A stretch of 64,000 bases of DNA, from the NCBI GenBank assembly GCA_963930775.1, contig OZ005694.1, positions 4,953,054 through 5,017,053 of the forward strand, written 5' to 3'. The notes beneath the pieces were generated by a model. It made no database searches, was not told where the DNA came from, and was given only the letters and a program-made list of their open reading frames with translations. This document shows positions 5,878 to 25,107 of the stretch, in pieces (the first letter of the stretch is position 1; each line of letters opens with the position of its first letter). Source of the stretch: Cliona cf. orientalis (taxonomy: Eukaryota > Porifera > Demospongiae > Clionaida > Clionaidae). The position numbers and the translations under genes are program-made.

Positions 5878-6305
5878 CTCAGTGTACTTAAAGCCATGGC
5901 AGTTACTAACTTCCAAACTACTGCTGAAATAGACATACAATGTCATGTACTTCAAAGGCTGGTGCTGTCTCTAAGTAAAAGGATAGAGGCCTCATCATGG
6001 TGTTTGAATGAAAGACTAACTCAAGTACTTTGATGTTAATAATTAATCAACCGCAAACAATTAACTAATTAAGCGCTAAGCACGGCATTTAGCCACGCCC
6101 TTTAGATTGCTAAATTGCGAGTTCCAACCTTAAAGCAGCAAAGACCTTAACTATGAAGTAAGAAGCCTAAGACAGTGATCTAAACTTTCACCAGAGGGAT
6201 TGTGAAAATAGCGTTCTGGTCAAGTTTTATTCTGTGTAGACACTGTTTTTGGAGTGCCGACAGTCTAATCTTCCTCTTGTAAGTTCAAAACGAACAAACT
6301 TATTT
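5878..6305. mobile_element. truncated MITE, CTCAGTG..TTAAGG family
   Basis: It starts with CTCAGTGTACTTAAAGCC and runs colinear with the complete element at 40951-41635 for ~420 bp ('AAGGATAGAGGCCTCATCAT', 'AAAATAGCGTTCTGGTC'), then stops at the LRR-unit sequence 'TACACATTGTTCATAAAGG'. The right end is missing. It interrupts the duplicated intron block that is intact around 27540-27610. Confidence 0.75.
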
Positions 6306-7141
6306 GTACACATTGTTCATAAAGGTTGATCATCCCAGGGGCAGGGCTTCCCTACACACTAGCTAAATTAGCCATTTGCTATTCTATCTTTTAGTCCCTG
6401 TACAGAGTATGGCCGTTTTATCATTGTTTTCCTTTGCGAACTATTTTGAAATCAATCTTTCAATTTGATGGGAAATATTAAATTTTATGGAAAATGGCTG
6501 CAAGATTTTGTAAGCTTCAGGAACCCCTGGTTGAATATTGTGTAGTGTATGCATACTTATTAGAAAAATAATAATAGGCATTACTGTATTGTAGGTGTTC
6601 CCACAGGATTTTTTTAGCTTCTGATATCACCTATTATGTGCACAAAAAGGAGTGATGGTTATAGAATCTTGTTTATGGGGAGCCAAACATGGTAGAGAGT
6701 AGCTAAGCTAACTTCAAAAGATGTCCCTCTCTGCCAACTATTTTCTCGTAAAACATTTTTTGTCACTTCGCCCAAAATGAAGCAAAGAAAATTTCATGAA
6801 TTACGTTAAGTATCATGCTTCACTAGCTGAGCATGATGTCACTGGAGGCTTGTCCCCTGGCTGAACGATATGTACACTAATAAAGCTGCCGAGACCAACA
6901 TCTCTGGACTTCATGTTAGCTTCTAAGGCCAGACTCAAATCAAATGATTGGACTGATATAAATGGATTTCTATTGGCATAATTTATATTATGTATGCCAT
7001 GAGCATAATCTTTCATCATAATAATAATAATTATTATTATATTTCTTGCAAAGGCTTCCCCCATACTGATGATTTCATTACTCCATGCACATGCACACGG
7101 GATGTCGTGTCATCGTTGTCGTTTGCATAAAAAGTGAGATA

Positions 7142-7748
7142 CTCAGTGCACTTAAGGACTGTCTGGAATTGAAGAAGCTACAATTTTCAGTCACATTTAA
7201 GGACTCTTTTTAAGCACCTAGTAAAAGTATCAGAGGCTGATCAGGGTACCATATGAAAGATCAATCCAAGCACCTTCCGAATATTTAATTATTAACCGCA
7301 ACCAATTAACTAATTAGGCGTGGCAGCGCCATTCAGCCACGCCCTCTAAAACACTAAATCGAACTATCCGGAATTTAAGCGGCCACTTCTACCGAACCTT
7401 AGCTACACAAACGGAGGCTTACTATGATGATCTAACATATCATCGGACGGATTGTCGAAAAACCCCTCTGCTACGATTTTAGTCGCAAAAAACTAGATTT
7501 TGGGGGGTCCACGGCACGATGTTTTGCATGTAGCTCTGAACTGAAAGCAGCCATTGACAATCCGTCCGATAGATCGTCAATATCGAACGGCATTTGCTCG
7601 ATGAAGTGAGCTCAAAACTGCGGCTATGCGGCTTTTTGCCGTGGCTTGTTCGAGACTGATATGATAGTGACGTCACAATACAAGCCACTAATTGGCTCGC
7701 AGTCGGGCGCGCGCCAACGATAATCAGACATGCCTTAACTGCACTGAG
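7142..7748. mobile_element. 607-bp MITE, CTCAGTG..TTAAGG family, TA TSD
   Basis: The ends are inverted: left CTCAGTGCACTTAAGG, right (complement) CTCAGTGCAGTTAAGG. It is flanked by TA on both sides (7140-7141 and 7749-7750). It lies in the intron upstream of the LRR exon at 7971. The interior shares 'ACCGCAACCAATTAACTAATTA' in part with 41104. No ORF of note. The TA target points to the Tc1/mariner/pogo group. The TIR core TTAAGGC resembles the giant element's TIR. Confidence 0.85.
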
Positions 7749-7970
7749 TAATTATGTTGAGATAGGCATTGAAACAACTCATAAGCATGAGTTGATGGAA
7801 TTTTTGCTCAAAACTGGCTTCAGTGTGCTTTGTGACATGAAATTTCAATCTACTGAACTTACAGTGGTCATTGATTTGATAAAAAGACACAGCATAATGT
7901 GTGTACGCATGTAGCCATGTATGATTTCATTACATTTATTAAGTTGTCAGTGATTTATTTCCCAATACAG

Positions 7971-8054
7971 CCTTCAAAGCTGTGAGTTTGGTGTCGAGGA
8001 AGCTGAGATGCTCGGTGATCTTCTTTCGCAGGCCTCGTGGATTCAATCCATTGA
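7971..8054 (+). CDS. LRR exon (type A), NLR-like receptor
   Basis: An 84-bp exon between a CAG acceptor (7968-7970) and GTAAGT donor (8055). Read with one base of the previous codon it gives 'LQSCEFGVEEAEMLGDLL' then 'SQASWIQSI', a ribonuclease-inhibitor-type leucine-rich repeat of 28 residues. It ends with GA, which the T of the type B exon completes to Asp. The same exon recurs at 25992, 29150 and 34962. LRRs of this kind form the sensing end of NOD-like receptors. The receptor's NACHT part is not in the window, so the NLR identity is inferred from repeat type and exon phase. Confidence 0.8.
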
Positions 8055-8888
8055 GTAAGTTGTGTAATACTGCTCCCCATAAGCACATTTGTCATTTATG
8101 TTGTGGCCTAGATCATGCTGGCTCTAGTTACTAGACCAAGCATGAAGTTGAGCACTATTCTAGTGCAAAATTATTTGCATGGGGAAATGTACTGCATGCA
8201 AGTAACTATGGATCACTGTCAAAGCACTCACGCAATGAAGCACTGTTGTAACAAATCCAGAGCCCCATTCTTGTGCAAATACATTGAGAAATATGTTGTC
8301 TAGTGCACAGTACGCAAGTTGCTCATGCATACAACTTCTGCAAGCATAGCCTGTTAGAGCAGAGAATCAATGGTCCAGGAGTAACAACAACAATACACAT
8401 TGCATGCGAATGTACAATGCGCAGGAGTACCACTCTTGCCAGTAGTGCCATATCAGAAGTAAGAAAGCCTAGAGACCTGCGTTAGTTAGTTAGTGATGAG
8501 TCAATCGTTCCATAGGGATATCACTGAACACTCTTATATAGAAGCCAATATTGTCCCTTTAGCCTATGGGGAGCTGGTCAGGGAGTAAGAAAAGACGGTA
8601 TAGTGACGGTTGAAAGGTGCTTCGTTGTTCCACTGGCTCTTTAGAACATAGTTGCTCCAGTTGCTCCTTTATATTTATTGTGTTTATTGTCTTTTGTAAA
8701 ATTGCTCCAAACATTAGGCCTAGGGAATCTGCTGAACTGCTACTATAGCAGTAGTCATTGTCAGACTGGCTATCTTCTAGATCAATTATACAATGAATAT
8801 GAACTTGAGTGATCTTTCAACCGTTAGGATTATGATGTAGGGTATAGTATAGGGTCCCACTCTGGCATGTTAACTGTTAAGGCCTGGG

Positions 8889-9247
8889 GCGCGCGCTACG
8901 TACGTATCCGGAGGTGAACGGAAATAATTGAAAAATATACGGGGGTGTGGCCAATGGCTGACAGTTAGCTTTATATAGAAAGGAGTGGCTAGGAGGCTAG
9001 AAGACATCGTGTACAAGGTAGCTAGGTGATCGTGAGTTAGCCGCAGGATCTATTTAGCCTTTAGCGTAGAGTCTATATTATTAGGCTAGGCTATTGTCGT
9101 GTCAAGAGCAGTTGTTCGTGTATCAAGCGCTCGAGGCTACTCGGAGCAGCTGGAGATGGCCGACTGGATCGAGAAAGGCGGCATACATAGCCGCCCTGAG
9201 TCTTGCTTTGAGTGTACTCATTGAAAAGAGCGGACATTCTTCTGGTA
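8889..9247. other. left subterminal region of the giant element
   Basis: It lies between the left TIR core and the long inverted repeat. Plus-strand ATG at 9156 starts 'MADWIEKGGIHSRPESCF', which stops after 22 codons. The region is GC-richer than its surroundings and may hold a promoter or leader exon. No match to the corresponding right region (20566-20960) was seen, so the element is asymmetric here. Confidence 0.4.
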
Positions 9248-9622
9248 GAGTAAGTAACCAAACTTCGCCGCACATCTATAATCGGCAGGTATTACACTTA
9301 GCATAAGACGATCTTTCACAAAAAAACTGCATGGGCTTACAGGTGAGTATGAGTGTAATAGCGTCCAAAAAGTTGGGGAGAATTATTCCCTTTCAGACAG
9401 AATGGCGATCACGAGAAGTGAGCTGCCGAATACTTCGATTTTCGTCAGTCCGATATCTATCTTCGTCTTTGCATGCTTATCAATCGTTGAGACTACGGGC
9501 ACTAACAGAACCTCTTTCTAATTAGTGCGCACTACTAGGAGGCGCAACAGTATCAGCTACAAGTCGAGCCCCGCCCACCTAGAGCATGACGAAAACGTTG
9601 CAGGAGAAATGCTGACTCAGCA
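9248..9622 (+). repeat. left arm of giant-element long inverted repeat
   Basis: It pairs over ~370 bp with 20210-20565, with small indels. Shared strings include 'GCCGCACATCTATAATCGGC' and 'GAATACTTCGATTTTCGTCA'. It holds a splice-donor-like 'CTTACAGGTGAGTATGAGTG'. In the right arm the same string reads 'CTTACAGGTAAGTATGAGTG' on the minus strand. The arm could therefore carry a promoter and first exon facing inward from each end. Confidence 0.85.
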
Positions 9623-9863
9623 ATAATTGTACATGCATACAGATAGAAAAAAGATATTGTACAAACAGCAAAGGTCCCAGTTCTCCACAAGATTCTCTAG
9701 GAGGATTATCATGTTCTGTACATGAAACAGAGGTAAATCTGGGGTATACAGAATCAAATTCCTGCTCACCTTGGCCTGAGTGTTTGCAGCTTGCCTGCCA
9801 GGAAACTCCCTAAATTATAGGTTAGTGTTTGATATTACACCAATATAATGCCATTACAGTGGC

Positions 9864-12800
9864 TTAGTTACCCTCAGTCTTGCTACTAGTGCCCTTCCTA
9901 ACAGTAGTAGCCGCTCCTTTAGGCTTGGGTAGAGGAGGATCAGGTTTAGAGACTAAGGTAGCGGTACCTCTCTTGGATACTCTAGTAGTTACTTCAGTCT
10001 CCGGTAGACTAGCAGTAGGGGGATCACACTCTTCAGGAGGACGAGAAACACAGCCTGAAGCAATACATGTATATATGTACATGTATACATGTGCCTTCAC
10101 CCTGTGTAATTACATGCAATAATTAACATACCACTTCTAGGGTTCCTCTGGCTGCTAGTACCTCTCTTTGATACTCTGGTAGTTACTTCAGTCTCCGGTA
10201 GACTAGCAGTAGGGGGATCAAACTCTTCAGGAGGACGAGAAACACAGCCTGAAGCAATACATGTATATATGTACATGTATACATGTGCCTTCACCCTGTG
10301 TAATTACATGCAATAATTAACATACCACTTCTAGGGTTCCTCTGGCTGCTAGTACCTCTCTTTGATACTCTGGTAGTTACTTCAGTCTCCGGTAGACTAG
10401 CAGTAGGGGGATCAAACTCTTCAGGAGGACGAGAAACACAGCCTGAAGCAGTATACATGTACATGTGCCTTCACCATTCGTAATTACATGTAATAATTAA
10501 CATACCACCTCTAGGGTTCCTCTGGCTGCTAGTACCTCTCTTTGATACTCTAGTAGTTACTTCAGTCTCCGGTAGACTAGCAGTAGGGGGATCACACTCT
10601 TCAGGAGGACGAGAAACACAGCCTGAAGCAGTATATATGTCACCATTCGTAATTACATGTAATAATTAACATACCACCTCTAGGGTTCCTCTGGCTACTA
10701 GTACCTCTCTTGGATACTCTAGTAGTTACTTCAGTCTCCGGTAGACTAGCAGTAGGGGGATCAAACTCTTCAGGAGGACGAGAAACACAGCCTGAAGCAG
10801 TATATATGTACATGTGCCTTCACCCTGTGTAATCACATGTAATAATTAATATACCACCTCTAGGGTTCCTCTGGCTGCTAGTACCTCTCTTGGATACTCT
10901 AGTAGTTACTTCAGTCTCCGGTAGACTAGCAGTAGGGGGATCACACTCTTTAGGAGGATGAGAAACACAGCCTGAAGCAGTATGCATGTACATGTGCCTT
11001 CACCTGTGTAATCATATGCAATAATTACATGTAATAATTAACTTACCGCCTCTAGGGTTCCTCTGGCTGCTAGTACCTCTCTTGGATACTCTGGTAGTTA
11101 CTTCAGTCTCCGGTAGACTAGCAGTAGGGGGATCACACTCTTTAGGAGGACAAGAAACACAGCCTGAAGCAGTATACGTGTACATGTGCCTTCATCCTGT
11201 GTAATTACATGTAATAATTAACATACCGCCTCTAGGGTTCCTCTGGCTGCTAGTACCTCTCTTGGATACTCTGGTAGTTACTTCAGTCTCCGGTAGACTA
11301 GCAGTAGGGGGATCACACTCTTTAGGAGGACGAGAAACACAGCCTGAAGCAGTATGCATGTACATGTGCCTTCACCTGTGTAATCATATGCAATAATTAC
11401 ATGTAATAATTAACTTACCGCCTCTAGGGTTCCTCTGGCTGCTAGTACCTCTCTTTGATACTCTAGTAGTTACTTCAGTCTCCGGTAGACTAGCAGTAGG
11501 GGGATCACGCTCTTTAGGAGGACGAGAAACACAGCCTGAAACAGTATACATGTACATGTGCCTTCATCCTGTGTAATTACATGTAATAATTAACATACCG
11601 CCTCTAGGGTTCCTCTGGCTGCTAGTACCTCTCTTGGATACTCTGGTAGTTACTTCAGTCTCCGGTAGACTAGCAGTAGGGGGATCACACTCTTTAGGAG
11701 GACGAGAAACACAGCCTGAAGCAGTATGCATGTACATGTGCCTTCACCTGTGTAATCGTATGCAATAATTACATGTAATAATTAACTTACCGCCTCTAGG
11801 GTTCCTCTGGCTGCTAGTACCTCTCTTTGATACTCTAGTAGTTACTTCAGTCTCCGGTAGACTAGTAGTAGGGGGATCACACTCTTCAGGAGGACGAGAA
11901 ATACAGCCTGAAGCAGTATACATGTACATGTGCCTTCATCCTTCGTAATTACATGTAATAATTAACATACCACCTCTAGGGTTCCTCTGGCTGCTAGTAC
12001 CTCTCTTTGATGCTCTGGTAGTTACTTCAGTCTCCGGTAGACTAGCAGTAGGGGGATCACACTCTTCAGGAGGACGAGAAATACAGCCTGAAGCAGTATA
12101 CATGTACATGTGCCTTCATCCTTCGTAATTACATGTAATAATTAACATACCACCTCTAGGGTTCCTCTGGCTGCTAGTACCTCTCTTTGATACTCTGGTA
12201 GTTACTTCAGTCTCCGGTAGACTAGCAGTAGGGGGATCACGCTCTTTAGGAGGACGAGAAACACAGCCTGAAACAGTATACATGTACATGTGCCTTCATC
12301 CTGTGTAATTACATGTAATAATTAACATACCGCCTCTAGGGTTCCTCTGGCTGCTAGTACCTCTCTTTGATACTCTGGTAGTTACTTCAGTCTCCGGTAG
12401 ACTAGCAGTAGGGGGATCACACTCTTCAGGAGGATGAGAAACACAGCCTGAAGCAGTATACATGTACATGTGCCTTCATCCTTCGTAATTACATGTAATA
12501 ATTAACATACCACCTCTAGGGTTCCTCTGGCTGCTAGTACCTCTCTTGGATACTCTGGTAGTTACTTCAGTCTCCGGTAGACTAGCAGTAGGGGGATCAC
12601 ACTCTTTAGGAGGATGAGAAACACAGCCTGAAGCAGTATACATGTACATGTACATGTGCCTTTATCCTGTGTAATTACATGTAATAATTAACATACCGCC
12701 TCTAGGGTTCCTCTGGCTGCTAGTACCTCTCTTTGATACTCTGGTAGTTACTTCAGTTTCCGGTTGACTAGCAGTAGGGGGATCACACTCTTCAGGAGGA

Positions 12801-13113
12801 CGAGAAACACAGCCTGAAGCAGTATACATGTACATCCTGTGTACTACACTAGTATTGATGTTAATTTTATGCTATGTCAAATGCTCGCAAAAAGTTCAGT
12901 ATACAGTAATTACATGTAGCTACATGTACATAGCAATGTGCCTGTACAGCATAATTTATCCCGTGTAATTACATGTAATAATTAACATACCACCTCTAGG
13001 GTTCCTCTGGCTGCTAGTACCTCTCTTGGATACTCTACATGTAGTAGTTACTTTAGTCTCAGGTAGACTAGCAGCAAGGGGATCACACTCTTCAGGAGGA
13101 CGAGAAATACAAC
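9864..13113 (-). CDS. array of 17 tandem ~117-bp exons encoding a 39-aa repeat
   Basis: Seventeen units of ~175-195 bp (one spacing of ~290 bp) each hold an exon on the minus strand. The acceptor is TTCAG|GCTGTG or similar, the donor GGTG|GTATGT. Typical exons are 117 bp, phase 1-1, encoding 'CVSRPPEECDPPTASLPETE' followed by 'VTTRVSKRGTSSQRNPRGG'. The first (13113-12991) is 123 bp. The last (10054-9864) has a different end, 'KPDPPLPKPKGAATTVRK...', and a TAA stop at 9864-9866. Since every exon keeps frame, copy number can change without breaking the protein. Introns are ~60-75 bp and rich in ACATGT and TAATTA. The protein is predicted to be disordered and basic. A donor-like GAGG|GTAACT just before the stop allows another 3' end. 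Confidence 0.75.
10125..13113. repeat. tandem repeat array, ~180-bp unit, 16 copies plus edge copy
   Basis: The string 'TCTAGGGTTCCTCTGGCTG' (or one-base variants) recurs at about 10137, 10331, 10510, 10680, 10860, 11053, 11233, 11426, 11606, 11799, 11977, 12157, 12337, 12517, 12702 and 12998. Some neighbouring units share private variants (e.g. CTCTTTAGGAGG versus CTCTTCAGGAGG alternate in two-unit steps), pointing to recent unequal duplication of dimers. The unit coincides exactly with one exon plus one intron. Confidence 0.9.
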
Positions 13114-13176
13114 CTACATGTAAATCAATAATATAAACACTTCACCTGGTGTAATTACATACAAAAATACATGTAC

Positions 13177-13511
13177 CTCTGAGATTTCTCTTGGTGTGCA
13201 TACCCTTCTTGGACTTCACAGTAGCTCCTCTCGACTTGGGTTGAGGGGGGTTATTGTCTTCATAGGAGTCAGTATCAGAGTCTAAGGCAATATGGATACT
13301 AGCACTAATTAAGGCACCACCAAAAATTATTTCAAGGTATGTAAATGTCGCTCTCGATACAAGCCCTCTCCCTATTTGCCCTTCATGCTGGATAACCTAC
13401 CACATGTGGGATTCTGGCTACCATCCCTTTTCGATTTTACACCAGCTCCTCTAGACTTGGGTAGATTAGCAGTAGGGAAGTTAGATTTGACAGGAGTGTG
13501 TGAAGCAGAAT
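13177..13511 (-). CDS. two repeat exons linking PHD finger to the tandem exon array
   Basis: Exon 13511-13401 (111 bp, 'DSASHTPVKSNFPTANLPKS', donor TGTG|GTAGGT) and exon 13281-13177 (105 bp, 'DSDTDSYEDNNPPQPKSRG', donor AGAG|GTACAT). Both are phase 1-1 and join the protease/PHD exon to the first array exon (13113-12991). They are related to the exons at 15.1-15.7 kb, so exon duplication has occurred on both sides of the protease exon. Confidence 0.65.
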
Positions 13512-13672
13512 CTGTATGTGACGATAATAATGTTAATTAGGGGATCATTGCCACAGTGACAATAATAATATGTGAAAAATGCTTTCATTGATTCTTTCAA
13601 AGATTGGGATGCAATATTCTAAAGATACAAACTTAGAAGAGGGCACAAAAAATAATTTTATCGTACATGTAC

Positions 13673-14476
13673 CTTCTTCGCACTGAGGGCATTGCCAAGG
13701 AACTTTGTTCCATTTGTCGTTGCGCACCTCAGTTGGGACTGGGACACAACCCTCATGGTACCAAACGTTGCACTTATCACAACAAACCATCCACTTTTCT
13801 CCTTCTGGCATTCTACATTTGCAGTAAATATTGAATGTGACTGTATAGAGTGTTCTCTTCTCAATATTGCAAACAGTGCTCGGAAATGGCTTAAGCAGGT
13901 TGTTGTTGAAACATGAGTGGAGATGATTCCTCAATTCACTTTGCACATATTTCCTGGTAACGGGATTTACCCCAGCACACAAGTCGTATGCCATCGCTAT
14001 AGCGAATAATCCGCAATCACTAGACCCTTCTTGATGACCAACATTCACAACACTGGTAGATATGGTTGGCTTAGGTGTTTGTAGAATGTTGCACACTTGT
14101 GTACATATAGTGCCGTCCTCTACAGGTACAGTGTGCATTGAATCGAATAAATCAACATGGCCTGGAGACGAAAATTTGTTTGATAGACAAGCCCAGTGGT
14201 CTGAAGATACATGTATGATCTGAACAAATCTATCAGGGGTGGATGACCATATGCCACGCTCTTTCAATCTACATGTATCCTGTAGGCCGTTCTGAGTCGG
14301 GAATTGAGATCTTAACAGGCAATTGGCAGCTGACATATGTGTTGCCGTCAACCATCCACCATTTAAAAGTGTTTGTTCGTCAGCAACTGACAAGCCAAGA
14401 TCATTGACCCAGGAACAAACTTCAGGGCTCTCAGGGAGCGAGTCAGACGATACACTAATTGCAGATGGGTGATCAC
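13673..14476 (-). CDS. ULP1/C48-like cysteine protease plus PHD finger exon
   Basis: An 804-bp exon, phase 1-1, from acceptor CATCAG|GTGATC to donor GAAG|GTACAT. It holds the signature of SUMO/ubiquitin-like-specific (C48, ULP1/SENP) proteases. The histidine is in 'HVSSDHWACLSN', the aspartate in 'VDLFDSMH', and the cysteine in 'GHQEGSSDCGLFAIA' with a nearby glutamine. All catalytic positions are kept. A PHD finger follows: 'YCKCRMPEGEKWMVCCDKCN', 'VWYHEGC' and 'WQCPQC' give C4HC3 spacing. PHD fingers commonly read histone tails. An unspliced reading continues to a stop at 13545. In the transcript it lies between linker exons and the repeat array. Confidence 0.85.
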
Positions 14477-14599
14477 CTGATGTGAAATACAGATTAAATA
14501 ATTAATACTGTATGTAGAGAGATGATGCTTGTCACAAATGTTGCACTCAGGAAATTAATTAACTTAGAAATACTTGTAAATTCTTAAGCATTATCTAAC

Positions 14600-14920
14600 C
14601 ATTGTATATAATATCTTCAGAAAGACTATCAATACCAGGCAATGAGAGGGTGGATAAATCTTTCCAACCTGAGAAAAAAGGATCATTTATTTGCATAAGT
14701 TCTATTAATTATAGAAGCGTACTATATATTGAATCTTGAAGTCTTGTGGATGGAATGTGTAGTCTACCACCTTAAATAAAAACAAAAAACAAATAGGTTC
14801 ACATTAAACAATATGCATCAATCAATGCATGAAGTTTCTTACTACTTTTCCTCTGAGACGTTTTTACAATACTACTCCCAACAGGAAATTGAGGAACACT
14901 GTCACTGTCCCAAAAGTCAC
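14600..14920 (-). CDS. two linker exons preceding the protease exon
   Basis: Exon 14920-14843 (78 bp, 'DFWDSDSVPQFPVGSSIV...', donor AGTA|GTAAG) and exon 14668-14600 (69 bp, 'WKDLSTLSLPGIDSLSED', acceptor CTCAG|GTTGG, donor AATG|GTTAG). Both are phase 1-1 and connect in frame to the acceptor at 14476. No domain is recognised; the composition suggests an unstructured linker. Confidence 0.55.
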
Positions 14921-15137
14921 CTGTGGCAATGAAAAGCACTATAAAGTTTGGTACAGTATGTTAGCTTTCAACTATCCATATGCATAAGACATGTAGACAT
15001 GCACATAAAATATATTATTATAGGCTGCATGGCCTGATATGACGACACTAGCTACCTAGTTGAGACAATGGTTAATAGCTAGGTAATTGTAACTAGTAGC
15101 CACTGTAGAGTGTAATTACATGCAATAATTAATTTAC

Positions 15138-15717
15138 CATCTCTCTTGCTCTCCCTGGATTTTATGGTAGCTCTCCTGGACTTGGGTAGAGGGGGGTCAC
15201 TGTCTTTAGAGGAGTCAGTATCAGAGTCTAAGGCAATATGGATACATGTACTTTCACCCCGTATGATTACATGCAATAATTAATATACATGTACCACCTC
15301 TAGGGTTCTTCAGGCTGCTAGCACCCTTCTTGGACTTTCTAGTAGCAGCAGGGGGATCACACTCTTCAGGAGGACGAGAAACACAGCCTAAAGCAATATA
15401 CATGTAGATACTTACCTAGTGTAATTACATAATATAAGGATACATGTACCTCTGACATTTCTCTTGGTGTGCACACCCTTCTTGGACTTCACAGTTGCTC
15501 CTCTAGACTTGGGTAGAGGGGGGTCACTGTCTTTAGAGGAGTCAGTATCAGAGTCTAAGGCAATATGGATACTTTACCTTATGCAGTTACATAAAATAAT
15601 TAACAACACCTCTGAGACTCCTCTTGCTGCTAGCAGTACCCTTCTTGTTAGGTCCTCTAGACTCAGGAGCACCAGCAGTAGGGGAATCACTCTCTTCAGG
15701 AGGGTGAGAACTAGTGT
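15138..15717 (-). CDS. four disordered repeat exons of the giant-element gene
   Basis: Four short exons, all phase 1-1 and all multiples of three: 15717-15610 (108 bp, 'DTSSHPPEESDSPTAG...'), 15554-15450 (105 bp, 'DSDTDSSKDSDPPLPKSRG...'), 15387-15295 (93 bp, 'GCVSRPPEECDPP...') and 15227-15138 (90 bp, 'DSDTDSSKDSDPPLPKSRR...'). Each has an AG acceptor and a GT donor. They encode proline-, serine- and lysine/arginine-rich low-complexity segments of two alternating types, acidic 'DSDTDSS' and 'RPPEE'. They look like linkers between zinc fingers and the protease. No fold is recognised. Confidence 0.65.
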
Positions 15718-15822
15718 CTAAGGCAATATGGATACTTTCACATTGTGTAGCTACATTCGAAATGATCTAACAGTATATGGTTGCATGTACAGTTGTAGAT
15801 GAAACAATAATATGAAGCATAC

Positions 15823-15885
15823 ATGAACAGCTGTGTAGAATTGTAGCTCTACATTCAAAGCAGGATTTCATTCTTCTGGAGCAGT
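15823..15885 (-). CDS. RING finger 2, second half exon
   Basis: Acceptor TTTGTAG|ACTGC in phase 1. It reads 'DCSRRMKSCFECRATI', supplying C, C-x2-C and completing the finger begun in the previous exon. The proposed donor T|GTATGC at 15822 gives 63 bp and keeps phase 1 for the repeat exon at 15717. This donor is weak, and without it the frame runs on ~40 codons to a stop. Confidence 0.6.
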
Positions 15886-15960
15886 CTACAAAGGTTAATG
15901 CACATAATGCTTCAAAAATGCTCGTTTACATACATGTACATAATATAATAATATACACAC

Positions 15961-16054
15961 CTGAACAGAACAAATGACCACAAGGTTCAACTGGATACAA
16001 GGTGTGAGCTTCATCACACATCAAGCACACAGCTGCAAAACTCTTCACATGTTT
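15961..16054 (-). CDS. RING finger 2, first half exon
   Basis: Acceptor ATGTAG|AAACATG in phase 0, donor TCAG|GTGTGT in phase 1, 94 bp. It reads 'KHVKSFAAVCLMCDEAHT' then 'LYPVEPCGHLFCS'. It carries C-x2-C and the PCGH..C half of a second RING-like finger. The remaining ligands are on the next exon (15885-15823). Splitting one finger over two exons with matching phase is good evidence that the exons are truly joined. Confidence 0.75.
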
Positions 16055-16115
16055 CTACATGTAATTGTAAGTGCAGTAATAACATACAGTAATGTACAAT
16101 ACAAAATTTAAATAC

Positions 16116-16234
16116 CTTGCAGGTGGGACATTTCTTGACGCGTTTTGCACATGCTTCACAAAGCACAGAATGCCCACAAGGCTTAAACGTAACGACTGTC
16201 TTCGTTTTGCAAACAAAACACTGGACAGATGCAT
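16116..16234 (-). CDS. RING finger exon 1 of the giant-element gene
   Basis: Exon from acceptor CTCCCTAG to donor AAG|GTATTT, 119 bp. It starts in phase 1, matching the transposase donor (T+AT). It encodes a compact C3HC4 RING: 'CFVCKTKTVVTFKPCGHS' then 'VLCEACAKRVKKCPTCK'. All eight metal ligands are present (C-x2-C, C-x-H, C-x2-C, C-P-x-C). RINGs of this short type, as in IAP and Mind-bomb proteins, usually act as ubiquitin E3 ligases. Activity here is inferred. It ends in phase 0 and joins exon 16054-15961. Confidence 0.8.
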
Positions 16235-16295
16235 CTAGGGAGAAAAAATGTGCTATACATTTGCATGATTACAATACTTGTATTTGAAATGATGC

Positions 16296-16451
16296 TTCTC
16301 CTCGTAGATAACTTGAACACAAGAACATCATCTTGCTAATATTTCAATTAGAATGCTCTTATCCTCCTCAAGGCAAGGAAGATTAGAGCATTCTAATTAA
16401 AATGTGGACAAGGTAAGTTTCTTACGTTTATTAAGTTATCTACGAGGAGAA
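16296..16451. mobile_element. foldback MITE in the transposase-RING intron
   Basis: The ends TTCTCCTCGTAGATAACTT and its inverse at 16433-16451 match perfectly. A second inverted pair, AATTAGAATGCTCT / AGAGCATTCTAATT (about 16347-16402), lies inside. No clear target-site duplication was found. It sits between the transposase donor and the RING-1 acceptor. Confidence 0.75.
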
Positions 16452-16497
16452 CCTTTATCAGTTCATGACTACAGGAGCAACTGAGAAATATACTTAC

Positions 16498-18035
16498 ATT
16501 TGATGTCCTTGTCATGACCTCCCTTCACTCCATAAACATTGGCAGGAGGATTTGTGAACACTGAACTAGCCACAACCTTGTCTTCAGGAGGCTTTATTCG
16601 TTTACTCTTTATTTCTGGTGTCTTGATTTCAGCAATATTTCTGAGAGAGTTTGGCCGTGGGTTAATAAAGGGCTTTGCGGCCTTTATATCACTTGAGGTA
16701 TACACTTCATCATGTGGATAACGTTTGAAAGGTGTAAAATCGACATTGGGTACAATCAATTTGTCGGCCAGTTTACCCTCCCCTGGCAATTGGATAGCAT
16801 CACGATCTAATGGATAAATGCCTGTGGTATGGAAACCAGCAACAATGTTGCTGGTAGTCATGGACTCCAGCCAAGCTTTGCTAAAGAGACGACAGAAATT
16901 ATAGTCACTAATGACTTGCCCAGGGTGGCTGACTTTAAAGTCATGACAAACTCTTCTCCAATGTTGTTTGAAGGGGCCAAAAACTCCCTTGTCTAGCGGC
17001 TGCGTTAAATGAGTAGTGTTTGGTGGCAGTGAAAAAAGAATAATCCCATTTTCAGCAGCAAGAGCAAGGGTGTCAGGGCAATAATGAGAGCTATGCCCAT
17101 CCATAAATAGAATTAAAGGCCTGCTTGCGGGAGCATACCTCATAAACAATTTCTTAAACCACGAGTCAAAAAGGATGCTGTTGGTCCATCCATTCTCCGA
17201 AAATCCATAGAGAGTTCCAGGTATTTCCCCAGTTGCCATTTCATGGGCCATCGTTTTCCTTTTCCAAACGATCAAAGGTGGAATTACTTGGGCGGCGGCA
17301 CTAACACAAGCGATGACTGTGATTTGCCCCTTAGATCCACTAGAAATGGAAAGGGCATTTTTCTCTCCACGAAGATGAACAGTTTTAGTTGGCTTGGGGT
17401 CAAGAGCAAAACCAGTTTCGTCCATATTAAAATAGAGAGCCGGATAATCAGCAAGCCCAGTTTCTTGAAGGGTATTCTCCAGAAGATCGAAGTAATTATC
17501 GATGCATTCTCTGGTGGATGCTCTGGCTCTGGAAACAGAAAGTGTTGCAGGAGTTCGGCTAGCCAAGAGGGGGTGCCGACAGAGGAATTTATTCCACCAC
17601 CCATTAGTCACTACACGTTCCACACCTTTACGTGCTAACAATCTTGACACTATGTCCAGTACTTCCTTTCTGGTACGTCCATAACCAATATCAGCAGAGG
17701 TGAGCAGAAACTTAACCAGATCTTCCTCTTCTGCTGTGGACAGCAACGGCGGAGCACCTGGCTTTACACCAGGCTTTACTTTTCCCAATTTATGATCATT
17801 GAGTGTTGTTCGGGGAATTCCATACAGTTCAGATACTTTACTGACACTTATACCACTGTGAACAGCATCCAGGGCCTCCCGCATGCTTAGGTCTGACCAT
17901 TCTCGATATTTACTGGGTCTTGCATTTCCAGTATCAGTGTATTTGGCGGATGTTGCCAAGCAGCCTGCAGCGGATCGAGTCAAAATCCGGTCTTTTAGTG
18001 GACTATGTTCTCTTAGGCTAGGTAGTAAACGGCTT
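16498..18035 (-). CDS. pogo/CENPB-type DDD transposase exon of the giant element
   Basis: An uninterrupted frame of over 500 codons. Residues ~47-90 form a pipsqueak-like helix-turn-helix ('SMREALDAVHSGISVSKVSE', 'YGIPRTTL'). Residues ~100-170 form a CENPB-like second DNA-binding region ending 'NGWWNKFLCRHP'. The DDE_1 catalytic core has aspartates in 'YFNMDETGF' (~209), 'LFMDGHSSH' (~316) and 'QPLDKGVFGPFK' (~352), so the DDD triad is intact. The 5' border TTGTCTTGTAG is a good acceptor. At the 3' end AAAT|GTAAGT is a strong donor in phase 1, which joins in frame to the RING exon at 16234. Without splicing the frame runs to a stop at 16469. It should cut at the element ends in the nucleus. 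An independent pogo copy nested in the element is the alternative, but no separate TIRs were seen. Confidence 0.85.
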
Positions 18036-18161
18036 CTACAAGACAAGAGAATAGTACAGTCACATTAAGCTTTTCTGCATGGGTGGAGGTAGAGGAATGG
18101 ATACTAAAACCACATAAAAGGCATCAGTGAGGTACAAGATATCCAATCACCACCCCTTTAA

Positions 18162-18300
18162 GGTTATGGGATAGTGTTCCACCCATGCATGGTCAAAGTT
18201 CAGATGAATAACTAATTATTGATTCCAATTGTTATGTACGTCCGCCAGAAGTCCACCAGCAGCCCACAAGTAAAAAATATATAGCACACACACAGCCAAA
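18162..18300. mobile_element. solo end of a TTAA-target MITE
   Basis: After TTAA (18158-18161) the sequence GGTTATGGGATAGTGTTCC continues as an inverted match to the right end of the element at 25108-25762 ('CATGGTCAAAGTTCA' is shared). The other end was not found, so the copy is truncated. The remaining stretch to 18689 shows nothing recognisable. Confidence 0.5.
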
Positions 18301-18689
18301 ATGCACGTGAAGACTTCATGGCCTTCCCACCACTCCAGGAGCTCAAGTGTGGGCGGGGCAACACCACCTCTTCACAGTCACATGCCTTTGCTCTGCCTCA
18401 TTAACAGCCATGGTCTAATCTCTGATCGTATGCCATGCTCACGAAAGTATTTGACAGTCAAAGGTCACAGGACACCCCCAACTCTCTCCCACCACATCCC
18501 CACAGTTAAAGCACTGCTCCTTTACGCTATACCCAACTGGAAGCAAAACCCACATCAACACACACCAAGAGAAGATTAGCCATAAGCATGTTGAATTATT
18601 GCAGGCCCCATGTCAACACGAAATGTCTGAATGACGTCAGAAATCAGATAATCAGATAAGTGAGTGCATATCATAAGTGGGCAAAGGAG

Positions 18690-19126
18690 TAGGCCTTGGC
18701 ACATTATGCTCAAAAATTGAGGTATTATGCTATGCTCCTATGCTCTAAGAATCACATTATTATGCTTCCTAGTCCTGGACATTATGCTCTCAATGTAACC
18801 CATTATGCTCATTTATAGTGACCTTTGACCTTGTCATGTGATCTCAATGGCCAAAACAGTACTAGTTTAATTCGCTATCAGTACACAGTACAGTACACAT
18901 GCACGTGTTCATGGCGACATGGCTTCAGCTTCACCACCAGTGGATACTGAGGCTGATAAAAGAGATGCTTGAATTTACATTTAACTATTTATAACTTTTG
19001 TACATTTATTTTAATTGTGACATTGACTCATGCTCACAAAATGTTGCTATTATGCTCAATTATGCTCAAGTCAGAGAAGAGAGCTATTATGCTCAAAATT
19101 ATGCCGGCATAATGTGCCAAGGCCTA
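18690..19126. mobile_element. hAT MITE, 8-bp TSD CAAAGGAG
   Basis: Perfect 20-bp inverted ends TAGGCCTTGGCACATTATGC are flanked by an identical 8-bp duplication CAAAGGAG (18682-18689 and 19127-19134). The 8-bp TSD is diagnostic for the hAT group. The interior repeats 'TTATGCTC' many times. No transposase is encoded. It is nested within the giant element upstream of its gene. Confidence 0.95.
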
Positions 19127-19529
19127 CAAAGGAGCCTAGCACTGTGGCTTGCTGGCTAGTCAGTTCATAACATTAACATAGCCAGCACTGACTGCCTCTA
19201 TAGTTTACATAGCAACAGCTACAGTGGTTAACCAAAATGAACTATGTGCAACATCATTCAGATGTTTCGCATTTTGCATGGGGCTTGCAGTCGTTCAACA
19301 CTCAATAGCTAATCTACTCTTATACACACATACAGTGTAGCAAATACACAAAAGCCATAGGACACCGCCTATAAGCATAATCAAGTGCCATGCAGTCTCA
19401 GTTTTGAAAGAATTTGATGCTACTTTGATGTGGGCAATTACTATTCTTTCATCAGGGCCCATTTCCAGTCACTAATCACATAGTAATCATCTCTGTGAAG
19501 GGGCTAACCCGCCAGACTAGTCCTCAGCC

Positions 19530-19843
19530 TAGTCTCGTGCCCAGCCCCCTTCGTGCACACGCGAGAAAGGGTCTGATTGAAAGGGTTGCACTAACGCGTC
19601 CGGCTGGAATGGTGTGCGTAAAATATAAACTAACTGCCACTTCCGTGATCTGTACCATACCGTATAGACAGAGCGCACGTGCGTGCGTATGGACCATGCA
19701 TAATTACATTCCACTAATGTCATGTGATCATGATTCTACAATCTGATTGAGCCACAATATACGTACCTCGAGGACAAGGAAGTGCGACCCTTTTGACCAG
19801 ACCCTTTCTGGAGCGTGCATGAAGGGGGTTGGGCACAAGACTA
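19530..19843. mobile_element. MITE with ~70-bp TIRs and 9-bp TSD (Mutator-like?)
   Basis: Left end TAGTCTCGTGCCCAGCCCCC, right end the inverse with few mismatches; pairing continues to 'AAAGGGT...GCACT'. TCCTCAGCC flanks both sides (19521-19529, 19844-19852). The TAG...CTA ends and 9-bp duplication match the small foldback elements at 21345 and 48804. A 9-10-bp TSD suggests Mutator-like, which is inference. Confidence 0.85.
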
Positions 19844-20209
19844 TCCTCAGCCATGCCACTCTTAACTCAGTTCAACAACTTGCCTGTTATCACTTCGAGC
19901 TGCAAAATTACTGATATACTGGGACATTACTGCTCAAGTCAGAGAGGTCAGGTTACCATCAGTGGGTCACAAATCAGAGTCTGTGATATTTATAGTGACC
20001 TTTTAATAATTAGACTTTCTTCATAAAGAATAATTGACAACTTACAATTTCTGGGATTTTTCCTGCTGTACCTTTTCCGGATTCACACAGTCTTGGGTAG
20101 AGGGGGTCACTACCTCGAGGAGGATATGATATGAATAACAGCAGGCTTTATTTAGAATATTAAACAATAGGAACAGCTTTATCGCGCCAAAAACAACCTT
20201 TGACCTACT

Positions 20210-20565
20210 GCTGAGTCAGCATTTTTCCTGCAGCGTGCTCTAGATGGGCGGGGCTCGACACGCTATTGCGCCTCCTAGTAGTGCGCACTAATTAGAAAGA
20301 GTTGCCGTTAGTACCCGTAGTCTCAACGTCTGCTAAGCATGCAAAGACGAAGATAGATATCGGACTGACGAAAATCGAAGTATTCGGCAGCTCACTTCTC
20401 GTGATCGCCATTCTGTCTGAAAGGGAATAATTCTCCCCAACTTTTTGAAGGCTATTGCACTCATACTTACCTGTAAGCCCATGCAATTTTTTTGTGAAAG
20501 ATCGTCTTATGCTAAGTGTAATACCTGCCGATTATAGATGTGCGGCGAAGTTTGGTTACTTACTC
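20210..20565 (-). repeat. right arm of giant-element long inverted repeat; probable 5' end of its gene
   Basis: Inverted copy of 9248-9622. On the minus strand it contains 'ATGGGCTTACAG' followed by GTAAGT, i.e. a possible first coding or leader exon ending near 20472 (phase 0, peptide MGLQ). The transposase exon appears to begin at a splice acceptor (18035), so an upstream exon is required. This arm is the natural place for it, though the connecting exons between 20.4 and 18.1 kb were not identified and the phases do not directly match. Confidence 0.55.
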
Positions 20566-21140
20566 TATATTCCTTGTTAGCAAACCGTAAGTTTCTATCA
20601 TAAAGCCAACACAAGGCTATGAATATTTAATTAGCTCGAAGTTGACTACAATTTCAGTCTTCGTAGGCTTATAACTCCCCGAAGGTACATGCATGTAAGA
20701 CGCTAATTTGAAAATTGGTAGTGCTAGTCATGGTTATTAGGAGGATCTCCTCAACTAGAGCCTACCTAGTTTCTATATACGCCGCCTAAGTGAGTGTATG
20801 AATATTTAATTACTGCTAATTAATAAACAGGTGGGCGTGGTCATTAGTTAATTAATTAGAATCTATATCGTGTGTAGTAACTATATTCCAAGTTAGAAGT
20901 TCATAGCTTGCTCCAAGTAGCCTCCATAACCTGATATGTGACCCTCGCTCCAGTTCAAGTGGACCCAGGCCTTAACTGTACAGAGCCCATGCAGGGATGC
21001 TACTGGTTTGTCTGGAGGAGATAATCAAAAGAACGATACATTCATGCATGCATTATTACCATGTGACATTGTATATGAAATGTCATAATTAATGTGTATT
21101 TTCAAAAAAATTTAGATTATTGTTTATCTTCCATTGACAG

Positions 21141-21221
21141 TCTTTCAGAAAACGATATTGGTTCTGGCGTAAAGGCTCTGTCTAAAGGTATCAGGAACTG
21201 CAAAGAGCTCAAGACACTCAC
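21141..21221 (+). CDS. LRR exon (type B), NLR-like receptor
   Basis: An 81-bp exon, acceptor TTGACAG, donor CAC|GTAAGT. It reads (D)'LSENDIGSGVKALSKGIR' 'NCKELKTL', the second of the alternating ribonuclease-inhibitor-type LRRs. Its first T completes the Asp codon begun by the type A exon at 8054, from which it is separated by the giant insertion. The final AC is completed by the next type A exon. The frame is open. Confidence 0.8.
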
Positions 21222-21344
21222 GTAAGTCATACTGATGTGTGGCACTTGATTTGACTGGCAGAGTATTTGCAGAAAGCAATTACAGCCTATCTACTGAACT
21301 AACCATCCCATGTACTGTCATAATAGTTATTGTGGTGGCAAAGC

Positions 21345-21436
21345 TAGTCTCGTGTACCAGACCACTCCTTCCCCAGCTCTGGATGTGGTGCAATACACCC
21401 AGAGCTGGGGAGGGAGTGGTCGGGTACACGAGACTA
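21345..21436. mobile_element. 92-bp foldback MITE, 10-bp TSD GTGGCAAAGC
   Basis: Near-perfect palindrome beginning TAGTCTCGTGTACCAGACCA. GTGGCAAAGC occurs on both sides (21335-21344, 21437-21446). Copies at the homologous position in the sister units (27331-27422, 30480-30571) show it inserted before the units duplicated. Confidence 0.9.
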
Positions 21437-21561
21437 GTGGCAAAGCATGAATATCCATATTATCGAAATTATAGTTCCGTACATGTGGACTGAGGACTGA
21501 GTACACAGCCCTAGGAAAGATAGGAAGTTGATTGGGAGTCTCCCTTGAGTACATTATTGAG

Positions 21562-22868
21562 TACGGTGGCCCAGAAGATCACTCGAGATTGCACATTGGC
21601 CTTTCGATTGTGCTAAGAGATTGCACATTGGCGATTCGAACCTCGAATCTCCAATCTCCAATCTCTTAGGACACCGTGCTAAGAGATTGCACGTTGGCGA
21701 TTCGAACTTCGAATCTCCAATCTCCAATCTCTTAGGACACCGTGCTAAGAGAGATTGCACGTTGGCGATTCGAACCTCGAATTTCCAAAGTGACACCTTT
21801 TTTAAGAGAATACACGTTGATAGCCTCGTCCCTAGGCTCCCAAGAGAGCCTGGGGACTACGTAGATGAGGCTAGTACATTGCGAACCTCGAATCTCCAAT
21901 CTCCAATCTCTTAGGACACCGTGCTAAGAGATTGCACGTTGGCGATTCGAACTTCGAATCTCCAATCTCCAATCTCTTAGGACACCGTGCTAAGAGAGAT
22001 TGCACGTTGGCAATTCGAACCTCGAATTTCCAAAGTGACACCTTTTTTAAGAGAATACACGTTGATAGCTTCGTCCCCAGGCTCCCAAGAGAGCCTGGGG
22101 ACTACGTAGATGAGGCTAGCACATTGCGAACCTCGAATCTCCAATCTCTTTGGACACCGTGCTAAGAGATTGCACGTTTGCGATTCGAACCTCGAATCTC
22201 CAATCTCTTAGGACACCGTGCTAAGAGATTGTACATTGGTGATTCGCTCGCTATTCTACGCAGGCTGACGCGCGCCATCCACCACTTGTGGCAAGGGGTG
22301 TGGCCATTATCGAATGTGCGCGGACCGTTCCCTTATGCCAGAATTATGGCTGCTAACTTATGGTGGAATAGCACAGGCTACGTGCTAGTCTCGTATAACT
22401 CCTTCTCCTGCTCTGGATGGGATCGTGTACAGCTATGGTACAACCAGAGAATCACATGCGCGCATGCGCGATTAAAGACCGTGTGACGAGGTAAATCCCC
22501 AGCCGCACCTACCTAGCTCGAATCACTGATGTGCAAATCTCTTAGCACGGTGTCCTAAGAGATTGGGGATTCGAACATAGATTATATTCCCTATATAATC
22601 TATGATTCGAATCGCCAACGTGCAATCTCTTAGCACGGTGTCCTAAGAGATTGGAGATTCGAGGTTCGAATCGCCAATGTGCAATCTCTTAGCACGATGT
22701 CCTAAGAGATTGGAGATTCCAGGTTCGAATCGCCAATGTGCAATCGCTTAGCACAGTGTCCTAAGAGATTGGAGATTGGAGATTCGAGATTCGAATCGTC
22801 AATGTGCAATCACTTAGCACAATCGAAAGGCCAATGTACAATCTCGAGTGACCTTCTGGGCCACCGTA
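21562..22868. mobile_element. 1.3-kb TIR element with subterminal repeat arrays
   Basis: Inverted ends TACGGTGGCCCAGAAG extend for over 50 bp ('CATTGGCCTTTCGATTGTGC'). Inside each end, units of 'AAGAGATTGCAC(G/A)TTGGC' plus 'GATTCGAACCTCGAATCTCC' recur, facing opposite ways at the two sides (21605-22250 and 22530-22800). A 240-bp segment with its own small foldback ('CCTCGTCCC.AGGCTCCC') is duplicated in the left part (about 21745-21900 and 21990-22140). The flanks 'ATTGAG' and 'GTTGAG' are only an imperfect TSD. No transposase ORF. It interrupts the LRR-unit intron, which is intact at 27540. Confidence 0.8.
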
Positions 22869-23162
22869 GTTGAGTGTATTTCAGCTGTGATAATCATGTG
22901 CTTGTGGGGCAATCCCTGATATGCATACATGTGTACACATAGTTCATAAAGGTTAATCACCCCAGGGGCAGGGGTTCCCTACACACTAGCTAAATTAGCC
23001 ATTTGCTACTCGATCATTTAGTTCCTGGACAAAGTAGCCTTTTTTGTCATTATTTCCTTTTTTGAAATCAATATTTAATTGGAAATATTTATGGGAAATG
23101 GCTGCAGGATTTTGTAAGCTTCAGGAACCCCTGGTTGAGTATTGTGTAGTGTATGCAAACTT
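22869..23162. other. LRR-unit intron block
   Basis: Non-coding. Matches 27550-27835, 32485-32795 and, interrupted, 6305-6550 ('CCCCAGGGGCAGGGGTTCCC', 'CAGGATTTTGTAAGCTTCAG'). Confidence 0.7.
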
Positions 23163-24009
23163 ATTAACCCTCGGCGCATGCGCGAGGGTTATGGCAGTTG
23201 GTTTATGTGTCATTCTGTCTGATATCACGCTAGCTGCTACATACCTCGTTTACGAGTCCAACTTGCGGTGTTGTAAGGTTCCATATGGCGTTCCAAACGC
23301 ATGATTTGTGTGGATTTCTCAGAAAACGCTTTATTTGCCAGTTTTGGTGTCATTTGCCGATTCTAAGCTTCTTGACTTTACCCAAGCTAGCGATAGCATG
23401 ACTTAACGTATAAATAGGTTTTATATATAATGGTATATACGTCTATTAACCCTCAGCGCATGCGCGGTTGCATCAATCCCGCCGCTCAGTCCTTTGACGA
23501 TCATGGGATGACAGTGGCTTATTTTCAACTCTAAGGCTTAGCTGCTAAGCCTTAGAGTTGAAAAGAAGCCACTCTCATCTCATACTAAGCTGCCTGTATT
23601 CTGTGGTACCTTTTGACTCTCTGGCTTGTATGCATCGCCATGCATGGCATTACAGTGCTTGAACCCAAGTGAAGTTGCGATAATATTGGACATGCAATAT
23701 TGATTTCAGTCTTGTGCCAAGGCTTTGCATCATAGTCCTTCAAGTTAAGCTAAGTACCCCAAGAATTAGAGGTTAGGCTACAGTGAGGGAAGTTGAGTTA
23801 ATCTCGACACCACAGCATGGAGTTCGATACAACACACTAGGGTGTTGCTGCTATGAGCCGTTGAACCTTGAATAACACTGCTGTGCAAGTATAACATCCC
23901 TGTCTCGCCCTGGCCCCAGCCCTTTAGCTATCCCCCTTTCTGCATGCAACTGTTGAAGCATATAGCTAATGCCATGCAACGCGCCGAGGGTTTTGTGCTC
24001 GAGAGAGCT
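23163..24009. mobile_element. ~850-bp insertion with CCCTCGGCGC ends and long hairpin
   Basis: The unit at 27830 reads 'CATACTTATTAGATATTAG' without interruption. Here ~850 bp starting ACCCTCGGCGCATGCGCGAG and ending 'GCGCCGAGGGTTTTGTGCTC...CTCTAG' is inserted, with TTA on both sides. Its first ~250 bp are a dispersed repeat with a recurring frame containing 'TYLVYESNLRC'. The copy at 32795-33645 sits at the homologous position. A 30-bp-arm palindrome lies at 23513-23573. Confidence 0.75.
23513..23573. repeat. 61-bp palindrome (30-bp arms)
   Basis: Arms begin AGTGGCTT and meet at 'AGGCTTAGC T GCTAAGCCT'. One mismatch here (TTATTTT versus TTCTTTT). The copy at 33143-33203 is perfect over 30 bp each side of a single T. 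It would fold into a strong hairpin if transcribed. Confidence 0.9.
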
Positions 24010-25107
24010 CTAGTTAGATATTAGTAGGCATTACTGTATTGTAGCTAGTGTTCCCACAGGATTTTTTTAGCATCTGACGTAACCTATTTTGTGCACAAAA
24101 AGGAGTGATGGTTATAGAATCTAGTTTATGGGGAGCCAAACATGGTGGAGAGTAGCTAAGCTAATTTCAAAATATTATGTCCCTCTCTGCCATCCCTACC
24201 ACCCCACAATGCTCTCCCATACCGGCAAATGTGGCTATAATAGATTACCGTTACTTTTCTTCGTGAAACATTTGTGTTAGAATTTTCGTGTAACAATATG
24301 TTGGTTAACTTCAAGCATTAGCCATATTAAACCGTAGGGTGCTCATTTTCGTTATTTTCGTGGTTGACTTGGCAGTAAGGAAATTTTCCCAATCACGAAA
24401 CTTTTCCACCCACAAAAATTAATGCCTACGGTGATATGGCAAGTCCATGATGATGGGCGTGGCCATAAGCATCGTGGCAGCGCGGCCAATACTTCCCAGT
24501 GTTAGCAAGCAACAGTAGCCACTGTAATCCAGCTAATAGCATCTTCGACACTAATATTCTTCTATCTCATGCTATTTGTCCAAGTCTTTGTAGTAGTAAC
24601 AAAAAAGATCGTGAGCAAGGTTGAGCGTGTGTATCGATTACATCATCACTTGAGCAGTGCCACGCCCCTGGACTAATTGCTGTCACAAAATTCAAAAAAT
24701 ACAAAACTTAATTTTGAGGGCCTTTTCAGACTTTACACGAAAATTAGCACCCATGGAAAATATCCACCATACGCTATTTGCTGTATAAGTTAGTACAGAT
24801 AAACTATTTTCACATAAAAATTTTTCGTCACTTCGCCCAAAACGAAACAATGAAAATTTCGTGAATTATGACAAGTATCATGCTTCACTAGCTGAGCATG
24901 ATGTCAGTGAAGGCTTGTCCCCTGGGTGCAAAGGCTTCCCTCATACCGATAATTTCATTACTCCATGCACATGTGCAAGGGGTGAAGTAATCGGTTGTGT
25001 CGTAGTTGTCGTTGGCACAAAAAAACACCATATATTAAGATATTAAAGCAATCAATTCATAAGCATGAGTGGATTGAATTTTTGCAAAATTTGGCTTCAG
25101 CAATTAA
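24010..25107. other. LRR-unit intron block
   Basis: Non-coding. Near-identical to 27836-28915 and 33646-34735. It includes an inverted pair 'CCGTAGGGTGCTCATTTTCG' / '...TTAATGCCTACGG' (about 24342-24432), probably an old TA-target MITE fixed before the duplications. Confidence 0.65.

What the first reader, a model, noticed from the sequence alone, without database searches (positions are those of the whole stretch)
8860..20991. Giant 12.1-kb transposon joining a pogo-type transposase to RING, ULP1 and PHD modules
The minus strand reads as one gene: DDD transposase, RING, RING, linker exons, ULP1-type protease with PHD finger, then a long exon array. Every exon junction I could define keeps frame. 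A typical pogo element has only the transposase. A transposase fused or co-spliced to a putative ubiquitin ligase, SUMO-type protease and histone reader would be a self-contained kit for handling chromatin or host SUMO/ubiquitin control. I do not know of a described element with this order. Domain calls rest on visible motifs, the role is inference.
Basis: partly seen in the sequence, partly recalled or inferred. Interest (0 to 1): 0.95.

Follow-up and report, generated by a model that had tools for sequence, protein, structure and literature searches.

The report
Giant jumping gene with chromatin toolkit
An 11.3-kb mobile element, probably in a sponge genome, carries one long gene that joins a cut-and-paste transposase to two ubiquitin-ligase-type RING domains, a SUMO-protease-type domain and a histone-reading PHD finger; related copies in the same genome share this plan, which suggests that the element brings its own tools for handling host chromatin control.

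Summary
The finding is real, but its boundaries need correcting. The minus strand carries a frame-consistent gene: psq-HTH/DDE_1 (DD35D) pogo transposase, RING, RING, linker, ULP1/SENP-fold protease, PHD, then 19 array exons. The true element is 9248-20565 (11,318 bp) with ~380-bp TIRs and a TA target duplication. It lies inside a separate repeat, whose uninterrupted copy on another contig shows the empty site. The same genome holds a near-identical copy (10,314 bp; 16 of 31 exons tested, 99.8-100%), an interrupted copy and a 65% relative in the same order. Against that relative, dN/dS is 0.04-0.11 for transposase, RINGs, ULP1 and PHD (synonymous sites near saturation). Of 16 segments bracketed by the shared terminal motif, 13 hold both transposase and ULP1-PHD. 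Downstream same-strand linkage is 19 of 83 transposase hits, against 0 of 83 in each of three control arrangements. RINGs mark a sub-lineage, also seen in another genome (P0005). ULP1+PHD on other transposases is published; this pogo version was not found in our searches. Role inferred: local SUMO/ubiquitin control at active chromatin.

The parts
9248..20565 (-). pogo-type transposon proper, 11,318 bp, terminus GAGTAAGTAACC
   Evidence: same ends in copies B and C and in the shared terminal motif
9246..9247 (.). TA target-site duplication, left
   Evidence: one TA left in the empty site of repeat copy L016, from the alignment coordinates
20566..20567 (.). TA target-site duplication, right
9248..9625 (.). 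left terminal inverted repeat
   Evidence: 90% over 380 columns with the right arm; inner 305 nt 96%
20206..20565 (.). right terminal inverted repeat
16498..18035 (-). transposase exon: HTH_psq about 17780-17884, DDE_1 about 16832-17326, DD35D
16116..16234 (-). RING 1 exon
   Evidence: zf-C3HC4_3; nearest solved: IAP and MYLIP RINGs
15961..16054 (-). RING 2, first half
15823..15885 (-). RING 2, second half
14600..15717 (-). seven linker exons (15610-15717, 15450-15554, 15295-15387, 15138-15227, 14843-14920, 14723-14770, 14600-14668)
   Evidence: all in phase; 100% in copy B
13673..14476 (-). ULP1/SENP-fold protease (about 13890-14429) and PHD finger (about 13680-13823) on one exon
9862..13511 (-). 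array of 19 in-phase exons with stop codon; 15 of them exactly 117 nt, introns between these 52-77 nt
8874..9245 (.). left part of the outer repeat into which the pogo element inserted (terminus CTGTTAAGGCCTGGG)
20568..20978 (.). right part of the same outer repeat (terminus CAGTTAAGGCCTGGG)

Best explanation
This is a recently active autonomous pogo-superfamily DNA transposon. One multi-exon gene encodes a >1,830-aa protein: psq DNA-binding domain, DD35D transposase, two RINGs, a disordered linker, a ULP1/SENP-type cysteine protease, an H3K4me3-type PHD finger and a repeated basic tail. Shown: the structure, mobility (empty site, TA duplication, copies) and long-term conservation of the named domains together. 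Inferred, most likely role: the transposase binds and cuts the TIRs; the PHD docks the complex on H3K4me3-marked open chromatin; the protease removes SUMO (or a related modifier) from chromatin or repair proteins, or from the transposase itself, at the donor and target site; the RINGs add ubiquitin to the same neighbourhood; the exon arrays act as a flexible basic tether. The net effect would be to lift SUMO-dependent silencing where the element is expressed and inserted. Confidence: mobile unit 0.95; a single polypeptide in at least some transcripts 0.75; the SUMO/chromatin role 0.35.
For: Single in-phase model and domains; TIR, TA duplication and empty site; copy B with splice sites intact in the 16 of 31 exons tested, and 7 mismatches plus 8 gap columns in 5,114 against the window outside most of the array; relative D with dN/dS 0.097 transposase, 0.076 RING1, 0.044 and 0.058 RING2 halves, 0.088 ULP1, 0.103 PHD; linkage 19 of 83 against 0 of 83 in three controls; 13 of 16 motif-bracketed segments with both; A. 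queenslandica gene models joining psq-DDE_1 to ULP1-PHD; another genome's ORF with DDE_1 and RING (P0005), sister to the window with SH-aLRT 99; catalytic H, D, Q, C invariant in the 24 sequences aligned, chosen from those returned; PHD nearest to DIDO and PPS fingers by sequence, and DIDO, PHF2 and PPS structures solved with H3K4me3 among the Foldseek rows (E 0.03-0.07).
Confidence: 0.72

Rival explanations
1. One element, two products: a transposase that ends after the first coding exon, and a separate or alternatively spliced RING-RING-ULP1-PHD helper.
For: In-frame stop at 16469 just after the transposase donor; large transposase exon; two-product transposons such as MuDR are known (recalled).
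Against: All junctions keep frame; A. queenslandica models join the two in one protein of 1117-1370 aa, although these are predictions; ULP1-PHD is the C-terminus of one protein with other transposases (P0002 with a P-element HTH match, P0003 with MULE) and of one 1,146-aa open frame in this genome (L041).
Confidence: 0.22
2. ULP1 and RING act on the element's own protein (auto-processing, stability control of the transposase) and have nothing to do with host silencing.
For: Both domains sit on the transposase chain; SUMO state of a host cofactor alters Sleeping Beauty transposition (PMC10138897, passages).
Against: A histone-type PHD on the same exon suggests chromatin; no direct data.
Confidence: 0.3
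3. A host RING/ULP1/PHD gene that happens to lie beside a pogo insertion, or a domesticated gene.
For: Other RING-domain genes exist in the genome (C7 and C8 hits).
Against: Whole gene between TIRs, with the same order at 4 loci, empty site and a near-identical copy on another contig.
Confidence: 0.02

Closest known systems
Ginger1 DNA transposons, especially Ginger1-9_HM (Ulp1, PHD), and hydra and other Mutator elements with Ulp1 (PMC2836005, passages seen)
   Same: ULP1, in one case with PHD, carried C-terminal to a transposase in an animal
   Different: Gypsy-integrase-type transposase, no RING listed, 3.8 kb
Amphimedon queenslandica LOC109581489 (P0109-P0113, P0115)
   Same: psq-DDE_1 transposase, repeat-unit linker, C-terminal ULP1-PHD
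   Different: no RING match; array before, not after, ULP1; ULP1 about 34% and PHD about 36% identical; transposase in another clade of the family tree
pogo superfamily as surveyed in PMC7386202 (passages)
   Same: DDE_1, DD35D, HTH_psq known in Fot-type members, TA duplication; long TIRs of 392-856 bp reported in insect members
   Different: survey range 1.2-5.2 kb and transposases of 300-977 aa; 'ULP1', 'PHD' and 'RING finger' do not occur in its main text
Branchiostoma MULE-type protein LOC144927209 (P0003) and P-element-type protein P0002
   Same: ULP1-PHD at the C-terminus of a transposase-like protein
   Different: unrelated transposases
RAG2 PHD finger in V(D)J recombinase (recalled; listing only)
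   Same: functional parallel: H3K4me3 reader on a DDE recombinase complex
   Different: separate protein, no ULP1 link

Membership tests
pogo superfamily (IS630-Tc1-mariner) | DDE_1 catalytic core with DDD triad | tested here: met
   DDE_1 9.2e-21; D205, D312, D348 of the model, DD35D
pogo superfamily (IS630-Tc1-mariner) | N-terminal HTH of a type known in the superfamily | tested here: met
   HTH_psq 3.9e-8; HTH_psq listed for the superfamily in PMC7386202
pogo superfamily (IS630-Tc1-mariner) | TIRs flanked by TA target duplication | tested here: met
   TAGAGTAAG at both ends of 4 of 4 further loci looked at (L028, L030, L031, L035)
pogo superfamily (IS630-Tc1-mariner) | size within the published 1.2-5.2 kb / 300-977 aa (a range, not a definition) | tested here: not met
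   11,318 bp and >1,830 aa
pogo superfamily (IS630-Tc1-mariner) | placement in a named family (Fot, Passer, Tigger, Mover, Lemi, pogoR) | not tested
   no reference sequences in the tree
ULP1/SENP (C48) protease | fold and catalytic H, D, Q, C | tested here: met
ULP1/SENP (C48) protease | score above Pfam's gathering cutoff | tested here: not met
   12.6 against 20.7 bits
ULP1/SENP (C48) protease | cleavage of SUMO | not testable with these tools
   needs an enzyme assay
RING domain | zinc-ligand pattern above cutoff, both copies | tested here: met
   zf-C3HC4_3 66.4 bits for the protein, two stretches
PHD finger, H3K4me3 type | PHD fold and aromatic-cage-like residues | tested here: met
   PHD above cutoff; Y, M and W aligned with PPS and DIDO fingers; cage assignment recalled; binding not tested
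Ginger1 | Gypsy-integrase-type transposase | tested here: not met
   the transposase exon hits DDE_1 (and DDE_3), no integrase family
Domesticated pogo gene | single locus without TIRs or target duplication | tested here: not met

The most novel reading that the evidence does not exclude
A transposon-encoded counter-silencing machine: SUMO eraser, ubiquitin writer and histone-mark reader on the transposase itself, acting in cis to open chromatin and defeat SUMO-dependent (for example Piwi-guided) silencing. The ULP1-PHD part would be a mobile module gained by several unrelated transposase types in animals (pogo, MULE-type, P-type, Ginger1), and the RING pair a later gain in one pogo lineage.
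Probability: 0.3. Interest if true: 0.82.

Novelty: new variant of a known kind. Interest (0 to 1): 0.62.

Why it matters
Protease-bearing transposons have been known for years; a role in transposition was proposed in the Ginger paper, and I saw no test of it. Here a near-identical, apparently recent copy pair, a diverged relative under purifying selection, and several size and domain variants occur in one genome. That makes the old question of what ULP1 and PHD do for a transposon directly testable. It is also more than twice the upper size of one large pogo survey and shows one module, ULP1-PHD, attached to several unrelated transposases.

Tried and rejected
Element ends at 8874/20978 (terminal 13-bp match GTTAAGGCCTGGG, 0 of 2000 base shuffles): real, but they belong to the outer repeat; rejected as ends of the pogo element. 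Contig-length coincidence P0060/P0179 (both 4304) as linkage evidence: superseded and not used. First exon 19767-19854 (MAEDSL...): phase does not fit, and it lies in an inverted repeat; rejected. Single origin of pogo ULP1-PHD: the ULP1-PHD tree puts the A. queenslandica pogo copy among long branches (P0002, P0003), so one or several gains cannot be told apart. Viral contigs and genome contigs: no relatives. Host gene beside a pogo, and domestication: rejected. Codon differences among the 15 array exons, 174 synonymous against 253 nonsynonymous over all pairs, show no clear purifying selection on array sequence; only exon length and phase are kept. Long inverted arms were sought in 15 fetched loci of linked relatives and found in 6 (L028, L030, L031, L035, L036, L037; 226-441 nt); L029 had 33 nt and 8 had none listed, though several 10-kb stretches do not hold both ends. 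The transposase homologue search admitted only proteins of 588-1870 aa, so ordinary short pogo ORFs were not sampled. Of 74 terminal-motif sites, 32 form the 16 facing pairs and 42 stayed unpaired.

Full report

Is it more than chance? The exon-chaining score is 161 for the right phase, 78 and 92 for the other phases and 33-64 on the other strand. For the non-array part it is 49.7, against 37.6 and 39.1 for the other phases and at most 39.1 in 102 null runs. The stronger tests are the copies below.

Correct boundaries. Genome search shows that window 8874-9247 is a separate repeat with 12 other near-full copies at 93-99% and a few fragmented or weaker ones, while the other two pogo copies match that query only from window 9244-9246 inward. 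In the repeat copy on C9 (L016) the left part (99.5%) and the right part (97.8%) abut directly, leaving one TA. So the pogo element is 9248-20565, duplicated a TA, and landed inside another repeat that itself lies in one unit of the tandem array.

Other copies. Copy B (C1:36959886-36970203, 10,314 bp) has the 16 exons tested, of 31, at 99.8-100% with splice sites intact, and 7 mismatches plus 8 gap columns in 5,114 columns from 18100 to 12990: recent movement. Copy C (13,283 bp between the end motifs) is interrupted within the transposase exon. Relative D (65% transposase) keeps the order transposase, RING, RING, ULP1-PHD, array, with dN/dS of 0.04-0.11 in the domains; dS there is near saturation, so only the direction is safe. 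In alignable linker pieces the ratio is 0.56-0.76. Against copy C changes are few, with 0.215 for the transposase, 0.337 for ULP1 and 0.94 for the first linker exon. The array unit counts differ: 18, 14 and 7 motif matches in the window, B and C.

The wider family. Of 83 transposase hits in the genome, 19 (the window's included) have a ULP1-PHD hit downstream on the same strand within 8 kb; upstream same strand, downstream opposite and upstream opposite give 0 of 83 each. The two lists are capped and so are lower bounds. The shared terminal motif TAGAGTAAGNNANCAA occurs 74 times against 6 for its reversed control. Of the 74 sites, 32 form 16 facing pairs that bracket 154 bp to 13.3 kb: 12 hold both hits, one more (C11:6586104) holds both on closer look, one has a transposase hit only, one ULP1 only, one neither. 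Inverted arms of 226-441 nt were found in 6 of 15 fetched relatives, and 4 of 4 looked at begin TAGAGTAAG at both ends. Repeated phase-1 exons of different sequence occur after ULP1 in D and before it in L028. In the RING list the hits beside a transposase are those of the window, B, C and D; another RING 2 fragment lies at C1:25.619 Mb. P0005, from another record, has the RING on the same ORF, is sister to the window (SH-aLRT 99) and differs from D (57%), so the RING lineage is not a one-off.

ULP1-PHD elsewhere. It sits at the C-terminus of a Branchiostoma MULE-type protein (P0003) and of a protein with a P-element HTH match (P0002); P0001 and P0004 carry it too, but no transposase family matched them. 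It also ends a 1,146-aa open frame in this genome that matched no transposase family (L041). Ginger1 elements carry Ulp1, one with PHD, and Mutator elements with Ulp1 are cited there (PMC2836005, passages). In the main text of the pogo surveys PMC7386202 (passages) and PMC7325037 (passages) the terms ULP1, PHD and RING finger do not occur. Judged by their listings, searches brought up no paper on a pogo element with ULP1, PHD or RING; the library is open-access only.

How it may work. Shown: structure, mobility, joint conservation. Inferred: PHD docking on H3K4me3 chromatin, SUMO removal, ubiquitin addition. Background: SUMO promotes Argonaute-directed silencing (PMC8131101, abstract and section 19), and SUMOylation of the host factor HMGXB4 lowers its activation of Sleeping Beauty transposition (PMC10138897, passages). 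This makes local de-SUMOylation the most economical role, but auto-processing of the transposase is a fair rival.

Host. The only organism named among the 120 listed transposase relatives is the sponge Amphimedon queenslandica, so a sponge is likely but not shown.

Noticed in passing
window 8874-9245 and 20568-20978; L016: A separate repeat of about 784 bp with ends CAGTTAAGGCCTGGG; its left part has 12 other near-full copies and a few fragments in the genome; it hosts the pogo insertion.
   Followed up: partly
window 18690-19126: About 440-bp insert with 21-bp inverted ends, absent from copy B, with an 8-bp overlap that looks like a target duplication: probably a younger nested MITE.
   Followed up: partly
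window 21137-35267 and 6302-8859: Tandem-like copies of a multi-kilobase unit (spacings 3.2 and 5.8 kb); the pogo-bearing repeat sits in one copy.
   Followed up: partly
window 46218-47297: ORF with DUF3504 (1.4e-22) and QRICH1 matches; resembles Crypton-type recombinases (recalled).
   Followed up: no
window 2-1447: 482-aa open frame at the window edge, no Pfam hit, looks transposase-like by eye.
   Followed up: no
L041; 28 of the 147 ULP1-PHD hits lie in open frames of 1,092-1,154 aa; the one read (L041) is a single frame ending in ULP1-PHD with no transposase family match: a large further family.
   Followed up: partly
window 16289-16458: Hairpin-like inverted repeat (26-nt arms) in the intron between the transposase and RING exons, probably a small MITE.
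   Followed up: no
G000 C8:7263309-7415317 and C7:6319250-6640920: Clusters of RING-domain hits at 39-54% identity to the element's RINGs, possible host source of the RING exons.
   Followed up: no
P0109-P0113, P0115: A. queenslandica isoform models differ in the number of 24-26-aa repeat units (8 to 18), like the exon-number differences between copies here.
   Followed up: partly
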